DNA of 64,000 nt from Gemmatimonadaceae bacterium (GTDB taxonomy: Bacteria > Gemmatimonadota > Gemmatimonadetes > Gemmatimonadales > Gemmatimonadaceae), in the NCBI GenBank assembly GCA_035606695.1, contig DATNEW010000026.1, forward strand, positions 477,896 through 541,895. Direction: 5' to 3'. A model generated the notes under the pieces. That model was not told the DNA's origin. It was given only the letters and a program-made list of their open reading frames with translations, and did not search any database. Positions 52,961 through 55,142 of the stretch are shown piece by piece. Within the stretch, counting starts at the first letter, position 1; each line of letters begins with the position of its first letter. The position numbers and the translations under genes were made by a program.

Positions 52961-53734
52961 TCATTGTTGCCGCGCGAGCCGGCGCCGGCGAATCGTCTCG
53001 ACGGCGTCGAACAACTGATCGAATGAGTCGACCACGAAGAGCACGTCCTGGAAGTGATCGATCTCGAACGGCTGCGACAACACGGCGTCGAGCGTGAATG
53101 GGCGGCGGTCGCATTTGGGGCCGAGCGCGTTCGCGGCGTCGCCGTGTGAGGAAATGAGACCGCTGCCGTAGACCTTCACGCGATTGTCTTCGCGCACCAA
53201 TCCGAACTCCACGGTGAACCAGAAGAGACGAGCCATCTGCGTCGTCTCTTCTTCGCTCGCGGCGTCGGCGGCGAGTGCGCCGAACTGCTGAAGGAAATCG
53301 GCGAAGACGGGATCGGAATGCAGCGGTACATGGCCAAAGACGTCGTGGAATATGTCGGGCTCGGGCAGGTAGTCGAGCTGCGCGCGCGGGCGCACGAACA
53401 ACGTCGTCGGAAAACGCCGCCGTGAGAGACATCTGAAGAATTGCGCCGCGGGAATGAATCCCTGCACGCCGACCGCGGCCCATCCGGTCCGCGCCGCCAG
53501 CCGCCGGTTCACATCAGCGAGATCCGGCACGCGGTCCGGCTCGAGCCCGATGCGCTCCGCGCCCTCGAGATAGACGTGGCTCGCCGTATCACGCAGCGTC
53601 GCCATTCGCCGCTCGAACAAAATGCGCCACACCTCATGCGACTCGGCGTCATAACGGCTGTAGTCCTGCTCGATGAAGTCGGGGAGATCGGCGGTCTCGT
53701 TGCCGTGGGCGGTAGTTGCGGCGTGATCGTGCAT
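52961..53734 (-). CDS. phhA: Phenylalanine 4-monooxygenase
   Basis: 257 residues, the size of bacterial tetrahydropterin-dependent hydroxylases without the regulatory ACT domain. The iron site is complete: H130 and H135 in FHDVFGHVPLH and E176 in FWFTVEFGL. RPRAQLDYLPEPDIFHD and VKVYGSGLISSHGD are conserved family blocks. The enzyme converts L-phenylalanine to L-tyrosine with a pterin and O2. No pterin dehydratase (PCD) or homogentisate pathway gene is adjacent, which fits a role in tyrosine supply rather than only degradation. The mRNA leader upstream holds a Tyr-rich peptide and an intrinsic terminator. Confidence 0.93.
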   Translation of the reverse strand: MHDHAATTAHGNETADLPDFIEQDYSRYDAESHEVWRILFERRMATLRDTASHVYLEGAERIGLEPDRVPDLADVNRRLAARTGWAAVGVQGFIPAAQFFRCLSRRRFPTTLFVRPRAQLDYLPEPDIFHDVFGHVPLHSDPVFADFLQQFGALAADAASEEETTQMARLFWFTVEFGLVREDNRVKVYGSGLISSHGDAANALGPKCDRRPFTLDAVLSQPFEIDHFQDVLFVVDSFDQLFDAVETIRRRRLARQQ

Positions 53735-53774
53735 CGTCGGCTCAGGATCGGGGTTGGTTGGTGCGCAAAAAAAT

Positions 53775-53802
53775 CGGCCCGTGGAATTGATTCCACGGGC
53801 CG
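53775..53802 (-). terminator. Intrinsic terminator in the phhA leader
   Basis: Arms CGGCCCGTGGAAT and ATTCCACGGGCCG (perfect, 13 bp with a 2-nt gap; effectively 12 bp with a UCAA loop), followed on the minus strand by A then seven T. It lies 40 bp upstream of the phhA start and 27 bp after the leader-peptide stop, so it must be bypassed for phhA to be transcribed. Confidence 0.85.
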
Positions 53803-53829
53803 TTGCGGGGTTTCGTCTGTCGCGATCGT

Positions 53830-53919
53830 CTATCGCAGCGCGAACGAGCTCCCACGTCCCGGGAATTGGGGCGCGTAATAATACGTGGAGTAATAGGAGC
53901 GGTTCGCGGCGGACGTCAT
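53830..53919 (-). CDS. phhA leader peptide, Tyr-rich
   Basis: 29 codons. After eight ordinary residues comes YYSTYYY, five tyrosines in seven codons (TAT TAC TCC ACG TAT TAT TAC), then APQF and a short tail ending ALR. No Shine-Dalgarno is visible, but the predicted transcription start falls at or within a base or two of the ATG, so it would be read as a leaderless mRNA. The frame is open upstream to 54015, but that part includes the promoter. Its only likely job is to sense Tyr-tRNA supply during transcription. Confidence 0.72.
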   Translation of the reverse strand: MTSAANRSYYSTYYYAPQFPGRGSSFALR

Positions 53920-53926
53920 GGGTTGG

Positions 53927-53955
53927 ACTTTATGGGCGGGGCGTGGGTTCGTCAA
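53927..53955 (-). promoter_or_regulatory. Promoter of the phhA leader
   Basis: On the minus strand TTGACG (plus 53950-53955, 5 of 6 matches), 17 bp, TAAAGT (53927-53932, 4 of 6). Transcription would start about 7 bp downstream, at the A of the leader ATG (53919). Confidence 0.6.
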
Positions 53956-53993
53956 GCGGGCAGGCGGGTGGCGTAAAAAAACTATACTACGAA

Positions 53994-54046
53994 CAGATCG
54001 GACAAAGTCCGACAAAATCTGATCTTGTCAGACTTTGTCTGATCTG
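53994..54046. repeat. Long interrupted inverted repeat with 10-bp phasing
   Basis: CAGATC, GACAAAGTC and GACAA on the left pair with TTGTC, GACTTTGTC and GATCTG on the right, each block separated by one unpaired base, around a 9-bp loop. Every decamer from 54001 begins with GA, so blocks recur once per helical turn. It lies 37 bp beyond the esterase stop and upstream of the phhA promoter. An A7 run (53975-53981) 12 bp away is too far for a normal minus-strand terminator. Confidence 0.7.
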
Positions 54047-54083
54047 GTCGTTCTATCAAAGGGCGCCGCGCACCGACACTTCC

Positions 54084-55142
54084 CTACGGAAAGATCACCG
54101 GAAACACGATGTCGGTCGTGAAAATGCACCGATCGTTGTGCCCGCACTCCGGAACGATGATGGCCTTGTGCTTGGCGCCCATCGTCTCGGTGACATATTT
54201 ATAGAACGCTTCACCGCGCGCGCGCCGCGTCGGGCCCTGCGCCATCGCGTTCGGCGACGAATCGAATCCCCCGAGTGGCAACACGTCCACCTGGCCCAGG
54301 AGATAGGTGGTCGGCCGTTCGACGAGCTGCTTCCGCAGCTGATCCGCCGACATGCCGGCGACATAGCCGGCAAGATTCTCGAGGCCCGCCGGCCACTGGT
54401 TGAAGCCGGGCGCCTTGCTGGCGTCGAACGCACCGAACGTGAAATTCGAATTCACTTTTTCGCCGTTCGGCCCAAGCGCTTCCTTGTCCGCGCTCGCCGG
54501 ATCGGCATTTCCGGTCGGCATCGGACGCTCGGCCACCGGCCACGCGTAGCTCGACGGATTGGCGACGGCGTACGTGATGGTCACGCCGGGCGTATTGTAC
54601 ACCTTGCTCGCCATCTCGTACCGCGTCGCGAATTGTCCGCCCGCTGAGTGTCCTGTAATGACAATTTTGGTAAGATTGGGAAACATCTTCTTGTCGGCGA
54701 GCTTGCGCACGATCTCGTCCACGAAGTCGAACGACGTGAGCGATGGATTACTCGGCGCCGCGCCGCCCGACCGCCAGGAGTTCCGGCCTTCGGGCCACAG
54801 GACCTCGTTCGCATGCGCCGTGTCGCGGCCGGCGATGAATCGCGGCGCGACGATGACCGTGTTGTCGAGCGCCTTCGCCAGGAAGCCGGCGGCCATCGCC
54901 GTCTCGAAGTAATGGTCCGCGTTGCGGCCGGCCCCGTGAACCATCACCAGGGCTCGGGTGATTGATGCATTGCGGCGGTCGAGCGGGTACGAGGCGTAGA
55001 CCATCGACCGCGCGGGACCGCCGTTCCAGGTGATCCACCGCTCGCAGGCAGTGACGGCGTGGGTACATGGCGCGATGGATTGCGCGCCGGCAGCGGAAAG
55101 GGCGAGCGCGCTCGCCACGGCGAAGAATGCGGATGTGCGCAT
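54084..55142 (-). CDS. Secreted alpha/beta-hydrolase (esterase-like)
   Basis: 352 residues with a signal peptide ending LSAAGAQ. The oxyanion segment VHGAGRN (69-74) and nucleophile elbow GHSAGGQ (S166) are clear, and the late CGHND carries the catalytic His (HN pattern). Such proteins are often annotated as poly(3-hydroxybutyrate) depolymerase-like or feruloyl esterase-like; the substrate is not evident here. Two Cys pairs in the N-terminal region (APCTHAVTAC) are likely disulfide-bonded. Confidence 0.85.
   Translation of the reverse strand: MRTSAFFAVASALALSAAGAQSIAPCTHAVTACERWITWNGGPARSMVYASYPLDRRNASITRALVMVHGAGRNADHYFETAMAAGFLAKALDNTVIVAPRFIAGRDTAHANEVLWPEGRNSWRSGGAAPSNPSLTSFDFVDEIVRKLADKKMFPNLTKIVITGHSAGGQFATRYEMASKVYNTPGVTITYAVANPSSYAWPVAERPMPTGNADPASADKEALGPNGEKVNSNFTFGAFDASKAPGFNQWPAGLENLAGYVAGMSADQLRKQLVERPTTYLLGQVDVLPLGGFDSSPNAMAQGPTRRARGEAFYKYVTETMGAKHKAIIVPECGHNDRCIFTTDIVFPVIFP

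What the first reader, a model, noticed from the sequence alone, without database searches (positions are those of the whole stretch)
53735..53955. Tyrosine attenuator in front of phenylalanine hydroxylase
The leader ORF has five Tyr codons in a row of seven (YYSTYYY), a 12-13 bp GC-rich hairpin with seven U lies 27 bp after its stop, and a segment directly after the Tyr codons can pair with the 5' hairpin arm. That is the standard logic of amino-acid attenuation. Low charged tRNA-Tyr would stall the ribosome, favour the antiterminator and let phhA be transcribed, making tyrosine from phenylalanine. PhhA is usually described as controlled by regulators such as PhhR; I am not aware of a published tyrosine attenuator on this gene, although I cannot search. 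The direction of control makes biological sense for a tyrosine-supply enzyme.
Basis: partly seen in the sequence, partly recalled or inferred. Interest (0 to 1): 0.9.

Follow-up and report, generated by a model that had tools for sequence, protein, structure and literature searches.

The report
Tyrosine-sensing leader before phenylalanine hydroxylase
In front of a gene predicted to make tyrosine from phenylalanine, this bacterium and many relatives carry a short reading frame packed with tyrosine codons followed by a conserved hairpin; together they would likely act as a switch that lets the gene be read only when tyrosine runs short.

Summary
A 29-codon leader (MTSAANRSYYSTYYYAPQFPGRGSSFALR*) and a terminator-like hairpin with seven T precede phhA; the Tyr cluster is unique in the window. 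Conservation, the decisive test, is passed: 31 distinct phhA loci, four in MAGs named Acidobacteriota and the rest in Gemmatimonadota, carry an aromatic, mostly Tyr-rich leader plus terminator. Protector, antiterminator and terminator helices are conserved; pairing is lost when partners are slid. Modelled before the last hairpin arm is made, the antiterminator forms while a ribosome sits on or before the last Tyr codon and fades within three codons; four E. coli attenuators behave similarly. The same genome has a second Tyr leader before a DAHP synthase-TyrA operon. Relatives use the template with Phe codons before pheA and His codons before hisG. Leaders look leaderless. Regulation itself is inferred. 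Against: 12 of 43 rows of the PhhA branch have no leader found, including the closest relative L031, and at equilibrium the terminator wins in 30 of 31 (and in all four E. coli controls). No paper that I opened or saw listed describes it.

The parts
53927..53955 (-). promoter-like site TTGACG-17-TAAAGT; predicted start of transcription at or next to the leader ATG (leaderless leader mRNA)
   Evidence: TTGAC at -39..-34 of the leader ATG in 50 of 71 leaders of other genes, whose ATG was chosen without regard to the promoter, and in 21 of 31 phhA leaders
53830..53919 (-). leader ORF MTSAANRSYYSTYYYAPQFPGRGSSFALR*
   Evidence: counterparts in 31 distinct loci, this one included
53875..53895 (-). 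sensor codons: Tyr 9, 10, 13, 14, 15
   Evidence: for uniqueness in the window
53867..53875 (-). region 1 (core of the protector helix, pairs with region 2)
   Evidence: A1 columns 48-56; 79.8% of cells paired, slides at most 48.5%
53853..53866 (-). region 2 (antiterminator strand; in the leader's PGR codons, TGR in most relatives); its core begins at 53863, 14 nt after the first base of the last Tyr codon
   Evidence: A1 columns 57-70
53791..53802 (-). region 3 (5' arm of terminator, partner of region 2)
53775..53786 (-). region 4 (3' arm of terminator)
53767..53773 (-). T7 run of the predicted intrinsic terminator
52961..53734 (-). phhA, predicted phenylalanine-4-hydroxylase (257 aa); H130, H135, E176 at the iron-ligand motif (role of the motif recalled)
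   Evidence: PF00351 E 1e-49; PDB 4etl/1ltu E 1.7e-60, motif aligned; positions

Best explanation
The 185 nt from the leader ATG to phhA are predicted to be a ribosome-mediated transcription attenuator that would sense charged tRNA-Tyr and likely switch on phenylalanine hydroxylase when tyrosine is short. Shown by the sequence and its relatives: a leader ORF with clustered Tyr codons; a 1:2 protector helix, a 2:3 antiterminator that excludes both neighbours, and a 3:4 terminator with T run; and the conservation of all three. Inferred: transcription starts at or next to the leader ATG and the ribosome loads on that leaderless end. With Tyr plentiful the ribosome passes the Tyr codons, region 2 is masked and then refolds with region 1, 3:4 forms and transcription stops before phhA. 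With Tyr scarce the ribosome waits on the Tyr codons; its front edge ends just before region 2 (14 nt ahead of the last Tyr or Trp codon in 21 of 31 leaders), so region 1 is covered, region 2 captures region 3 before region 4 is made, and polymerase reads on into phhA. The same device stands before the DAHP synthase-TyrA operon of this genome, so both routes to tyrosine would share one signal.
For: Leader plus terminator at 31 distinct phhA loci. Helix counts on A1: 2:3 87.4% of cells paired (slides at most 43.5%), 6 of 10 pairs with changes on both sides; 1:2 79.8% (slides at most 48.5%), 4 of 8; 3:4 94.0% (slides at most 45.0%), 8 of 12. In 77 model matches at other genes 2:3, whose pairing the model did not contain, is 80.7% paired against at most 44.1% when slid (partly expected, since the model favours the same letters). 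Stall scan over 31 leaders: mean antiterminator index 0.92-1.02 with the A site at -5..0 from the last Tyr or Trp codon, 0.51 at +1, 0.19 at +2, 0.03 at +3, 0.00-0.01 at +4..+11; index with a stalled ribosome above that of the ribosome-free leader in 28 of 31. E. coli thr, his, phe and trp leaders show a like fall. Codons fit the gene: Tyr before phhA and the DAHPS-tyrA operon of this genome; Phe top residue in 4 of 6 leaders before prephenate dehydratase; His in 18 of 18 before hisG. PhhA has the family motif; a Pterin_4a protein is present and no homogentisate dioxygenase family match, as for supply rather than breakdown.
Against: No expression, term-seq or mutant data. In full-length transcripts at equilibrium the terminator beats the antiterminator in 30 of 31 with the ribosome on the last Tyr codon, so the switch must be kinetic. 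The mean index rises again to 0.16-0.32 at +13..+16, and with the ribosome at the stop codon 7 of 31 leaders exceed 0.7: termination there needs ribosome release or an already formed protector. In 6 or more leaders (for example L003, L015, L022, L023, L024, L046, L064) the ribosome-free RNA already favours 2:3 (index 0.80-1.28). The window's own leader swings only from 0.61-0.66 to 0.30-0.47 by the generic index (0.62 again one codon before the stop). 12 of the 43 rows of the PhhA branch have no leader found (L020 cut by a contig end), including L031, the closest protein at 88% identity. On A2 the covariation of 2:3 hardly exceeds shuffles (44 of 500 reach it). Some leaders are short of Tyr or mix Trp and Phe. 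The supply role rests on weak facts (TyrA family missing in 15 of 24 leader-phhA genomes against 69 of 177 others, Fisher p 0.045).
Confidence: 0.9

Rival explanations
1. The hairpin is simply the terminator of the upstream alpha/beta hydrolase gene (or of an antisense gene) and the Tyr ORF is noise.
For: An upstream gene on the same strand ends at 54084; a near-perfect hairpin is symmetrical by shape.
Against: A promoter-like site lies between; leader, region 2 and hairpin are conserved together at 31 loci; no such Tyr cluster arose in 20,000 shuffles.
Confidence: 0.02
2. Nascent-peptide arrest: the peptide itself stalls the ribosome in response to free tyrosine or another ligand (TnaC-like), giving the opposite or another sign of control.
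For: The C-terminal half is conserved in protein terms (A/P..TGR..R in most rows), which an arrest peptide could explain.
Against: That stretch is the antiterminator strand, and L010, L017 and L046 have SGSC in place of TGR with part of the partner changed to match; the same motif follows Phe or His codons in leaders of other genes, so it does not go with tyrosine.
Confidence: 0.04
3. The Tyr-codon leader controls phhA by another route: Rho-dependent termination, mRNA stability or translational coupling, with the hairpin as a side feature.
For: Some leader-peptide candidates lack terminators (cys leaders of Mycobacterium, PMC1262725, passages read).
Against: Here an intrinsic-terminator-like hairpin with T run and its antiterminator partner are conserved.
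Confidence: 0.03
4. T-box or riboswitch sensing tRNA-Tyr or tyrosine directly.
For: Tyrosine genes are T-box controlled in other bacteria (PMC1262725, passages read).
Against: No Rfam family reaches its cut-off in 53400-54400; only two sub-threshold microRNA models match, on a palindromic repeat outside the leader.
Confidence: 0.01

Closest known systems
thrL, hisL, pheL, trpL leader-peptide attenuators of Escherichia coli K-12
   Same: Short ORF with repeated codons of the pathway's amino acid, then alternative antiterminator and intrinsic terminator; similar stall response in the folding test and the same equilibrium preference for the terminator.
   Different: Senses Tyr; stands before phhA and DAHPS-tyrA; the antiterminator strand lies inside the leader ORF as near-constant TGR codons; start predicted leaderless, Shine-Dalgarno core in only 8 of 102 leaders.
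Putative attenuators ahead of tyrA operons (Merino predictions, Table 7 of PMC1173090; passages read)
   Same: Predicted attenuation before DAHPS>tyrA operons, e.g. Thermus, Vibrio.
   Different: The word 'leader' does not occur in that paper's main text; phhA is discussed there under PhhR.
PhhR control of phhA (PMC1173090, passages read)
   Same: Regulates phenylalanine hydroxylase.
   Different: DNA-binding activator of a catabolic operon in some gamma-Proteobacteria, not a leader RNA.
T-box leaders of tyrosine genes (mentioned in PMC1262725, passages read)
   Same: Respond to the charging of tRNA-Tyr (recalled).
   Different: RNA binds tRNA directly, no leader peptide (recalled).
Phenylalanine hydroxylase as tyrosine biosynthesis enzyme (GapMind, PMC7311316, passages read: Dyella, Echinicola, Legionella)
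   Same: Biosynthetic role of a bacterial phenylalanine hydroxylase.
   Different: No attenuation in the passages read; 'gemmatimon' occurs 0 times in its text.

Membership tests
ribosome-mediated (leader-peptide) transcription attenuator | short ORF with clustered codons for the amino acid of the downstream pathway | tested here: met
ribosome-mediated (leader-peptide) transcription attenuator | intrinsic terminator between leader and first gene | tested here: met
   sequence criterion only:
ribosome-mediated (leader-peptide) transcription attenuator | alternative antiterminator excluding the terminator, conserved | tested here: met
   with the caveat that the model favours the same letters
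ribosome-mediated (leader-peptide) transcription attenuator | ribosome position on sensor codons decides which helix forms | tested here: met
   in silico only; the own leader's swing is modest by the generic index
ribosome-mediated (leader-peptide) transcription attenuator | leader is translated and expression rises on starvation for that amino acid | not testable with these tools
   needs expression data
T-box | match to the family model | tested here: not met
   no Rfam match at cut-off
PhhA (biopterin-dependent aromatic amino acid hydroxylase) | family profile and His-His-Glu iron-ligand motif | tested here: met

The most novel reading that the evidence does not exclude
Gemmatimonadota run a phylum-wide attenuation code built from one template: a leaderless mini-ORF whose TGR codons are the antiterminator strand, re-targeted to Tyr (phhA, DAHPS-tyrA), Phe (pheA), His (hisG) and perhaps Ile (citramalate synthase) by exchanging only the sensor codons, and carried with phhA into Acidobacteriota as a regulator-plus-enzyme cassette.
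Probability: 0.6. Interest if true: 0.85.

Novelty: new variant of a known kind. Interest (0 to 1): 0.76.

Why it matters
It gives a testable tyrosine-specific leader-peptide attenuator, on a gene usually treated as catabolic and protein-regulated, in a phylum for which the paper searches found no attenuator. The leader model matches 101 of 298 sampled genomes of the phylum at E up to 1e-4 (not each match was decoded). Because one near-constant RNA core is combined with different sensor codons, natural variants already form the codon-swap experiment that attenuation theory predicts. It also suggests that phenylalanine hydroxylase is a tyrosine-supply enzyme here, under the same signal as TyrA.

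Tried and rejected
Rejected: T-box/riboswitch; terminator of the upstream gene; chance. RNAalifold alone found only the terminator helix; the other two were named by hand and counted. The first stall index, with free RNA starting at the last Tyr codon, did not separate stalled from free (stalled higher in 10 of 31), because the protector uses sequence upstream of that codon; against the whole ribosome-free leader it did (28 of 31), and the masked-footprint scan was used. In one search the E. coli equilibrium was taken on the last regulatory codon, where thrL and hisL had already lost the antiterminator; one search repeated it one regulatory codon earlier with the same outcome. The ATG of the phhA leaders was picked partly by the presence of a -35-like motif, so the leaderless claim was recounted on the 71 other leaders. 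The blunt top-residue rule worked for hisG (18 of 18), but for DAHPS gave Tyr or Phe in only 18 of 47, the rest Ala, Gly, Arg, Leu, Val or Pro from GC-rich frames. The Acidobacteriota spread is sporadic: strong matches (E below 1e-20) in 2 of 150 genomes of that order, weak ones in 6 more. The first leader picker failed on a strand assertion and was rerun.

Full report
Observation. The minus strand reads: promoter-like TTGACG-17-TAAAGT (53955-53927), leader ATG 53919, five Tyr codons (53895-53875), stop ending 53830, 27 nt, hairpin 53802-53775, A, T7, phhA ATG 53734. It is the only place with at least five Tyr in 8 codons in six frames of the window, and neither such a cluster nor a perfect 10-bp hairpin with T5 arose in 20,000 dinucleotide shuffles of the 349-nt intergenic stretch. 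The downstream protein is a PF00351 enzyme, closest among solved structures to bacterial phenylalanine-4-hydroxylases, with H130, H135 and E176 at the iron-ligand motif (the role of the motif is recalled).

Conservation. PhhA relatives were taken from 201 genomes of the order (87 with a match, 30 loci) and from named genome contigs (80 loci kept of 561): 110 loci, with duplicates between the two sets. Short aromatic-rich ORFs and terminators were sought upstream and 31 distinct loci with both were chosen by hand. The model built from them marks 38 of the 110 over its full length, the 31 plus 7 duplicates, which is not an independent count. Most peptides end in a shared pattern, for example YYYAPRPTGR..R.R; a few have only two or three Tyr or mix Trp and Phe. 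For a tree 58 of 99 distinct PhhA rows were used; all 31 leader rows lie in one branch of 43 rows (support 98/99, root only drawn, bootstrap not settled). The other 12 rows of that branch have no leader found (L006, L007, L009, L011, L020, L031, L037, L038, L039, L043, L048, L049), L020 because the contig ends there. L031 is the closest protein and has a different upstream region. Four leader rows come from MAGs named Acidobacteriales or Acidobacteriaceae (L051, L052, L054, L057); strong model matches occur in 2 of 150 genomes of that order, so transfer of leader plus gene is my reading, with misbinning not excluded.

Structure. On alignment A1 (31 rows): antiterminator 2:3 87.4% of cells paired, best slide 43.5%, 6 of 10 pairs with double changes; protector 1:2 79.8%, best slide 48.5%, 4 of 8; terminator 3:4 94.0%, best slide 45.0%, 8 of 12. 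Pair 66/145 of 2:3 is open in 16 of 31. Three rows (L010, L017, L046) changed the antiterminator strand and in part its partner. On A2, 77 model matches before other genes (one an antisense piece), 80.7% of 2:3 cells pair against at most 44.1% when slid. The model did not contain 2:3 as a helix but favours the same letters, and covariation is weak because the strand hardly varies (44 of 500 shuffles reach it).

Stall test. The first base of the last Tyr (or Trp) codon is 14 nt before region 2 in 21 of 31 leaders, 10-17 nt in the rest. With a footprint masked from 18 nt behind to 12 nt ahead of the first base of the A-site codon and the transcript folded up to the terminator loop, the mean antiterminator index over the 31 is 0.25-0.73 at -13..-9, 0.89-0.94 at -8..-6, 0.92-1.02 at -5..0, then 0.51, 0.19, 0.03 and 0.00-0.01 up to +11, rising to 0.16-0.32 at +13..+16 (not all leaders reach the outer positions). 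With the ribosome at the stop codon 7 of 31 exceed 0.7. Without a ribosome the mean is 0.26, but seven leaders (L003, L015, L022, L023, L024, L046, L064) stay at 0.80 or more. In the full transcript at equilibrium the terminator wins in 30 of 31. A generic form of the calculation on E. coli thrL, hisL, pheL and trpL gives 0.97-1.00 (thr, trp), 0.73-0.77 (his) and 0.83 (phe) on regulatory codons, falling to 0.08-0.36 on the last codon (thr, his) or one to two codons after it (phe, trp); trpL is 0.50 on its first Trp codon, and thrL without ribosome is 0.65. There too the terminator wins at equilibrium in 4 of 4, on each of the last two regulatory codons. By the generic index the own phhA leader moves from 0.61-0.66 to 0.30-0.47 at +1..+13 (0.62 at +14; 0.36 without ribosome) and the own DAHPS leader from 0.97-1.00 to 0.25-0.52 (0.57 without ribosome).

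A regulon. The model finds two good matches in the own genome: phhA (E 6.7e-18) and C23:108023-108163 (E 2.5e-12). The second encodes MTRAQSYAYYYYYTTHTTGRSWRTR before a DAHP synthase (PF00793, PF18152), with a TyrA-family gene about 1.5 kb further on. In the order 92 of 201 genomes have a match at E up to 0.01, partial and antisense pieces included; in the phylum 101 of 298 at E up to 1e-4, 28 of them outside the order. I fetched 80 matched stretches, not all matches: the first recognised gene was DAHP synthase in 47, hisG in 18, prephenate dehydratase in 6, TyrA in 2 and none in 7. His is the top clustered residue in 18 of 18 hisG leaders and Phe in 4 of 6 pheA leaders; DAHPS leaders look Tyr-rich or mixed aromatic when ORFs are picked for aromatic residues but have Tyr or Phe on top in only 18 of 47 by the blunt rule.

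Leaderless start. Over 102 leaders the best -10 box ends 6-7 nt before the ATG in about half (54.8 of 102 by weight) and 8 of 102 have a Shine-Dalgarno core. TTGAC starts 34-39 nt before the ATG in 50 of 71 leaders of other genes, where the ATG was chosen without regard to the promoter, and in 21 of 31 phhA leaders, where the choice used it. A start at the ATG is inferred.

Physiology. The own genome has a TyrA-family gene, a Pterin_4a protein and no match to the homogentisate dioxygenase family (that search rang in 1 of 14 control genomes). Among 24 genomes with leader plus phhA 15 lack a TyrA-family match at cut-off, against 69 of 177 others (counts read by hand; Fisher p 0.045): weak support for a supply role.

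Literature. Searches for leader peptide, attenuation and Gemmatimonadetes and for tyrosine codons gave no paper; Gemmatimonas with attenuator gave one unrelated paper. Searches (25 of 46 listed) listed related papers, of which I opened four by passages: PMC1262725 (tyrosine listed under T-boxes; phenylalanine, histidine and threonine under attenuators), PMC1173090 (putative tyrA attenuators, PhhR), PMC7311316 (phenylalanine hydroxylase as tyrosine route) and PMC2965389 (in 2010 leader peptides known to the authors only in Proteobacteria and Actinobacteria before their own Firmicutes case). Only open-licence papers are held, so absence from print is not shown.

Verdict. A conserved and very likely functional tyrosine attenuator of the classical kind, with new features: sensor amino acid and target gene, a likely leaderless start, and a shared TGR core re-used for several amino acids.

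Noticed in passing
window 53985-54059: Imperfect palindrome (CAGATCAGACAAAGTCTGACA...TGTCGGACTTTGTCCGATCTG) between the upstream gene and the leader; 14 matches in the own genome, itself included, so a dispersed repeat. Two sub-threshold microRNA models match it, presumably by shape.
   Followed up: partly
L212 (G000:C23:104500-108600): Second Tyr leader of the same genome, before a DAHP synthase-TyrA operon.
   Followed up: yes
L188, L189, L190, L195, L198, L199, L204 and others: His-run leaders on the same template before hisG (18 of 18 stretches with hisG).
   Followed up: partly
L156, L164, L171: Phe-run leaders on the same template before prephenate dehydratase.
   Followed up: partly
L214 (G177:C269): Weak model match (E 1.2e-4) before a gene that looks like citramalate synthase (by eye, no family search), with a leader holding two Ile codons (NII) and a terminator; possible Ile version.
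   Followed up: no
L031: Closest PhhA (88% identity) sits in a different upstream context with no leader found: loss or replacement.
   Followed up: partly
L051, L052, L054, L057: phhA with its leader in MAGs named Acidobacteriota, sporadic in that order: possible horizontal transfer.
   Followed up: partly
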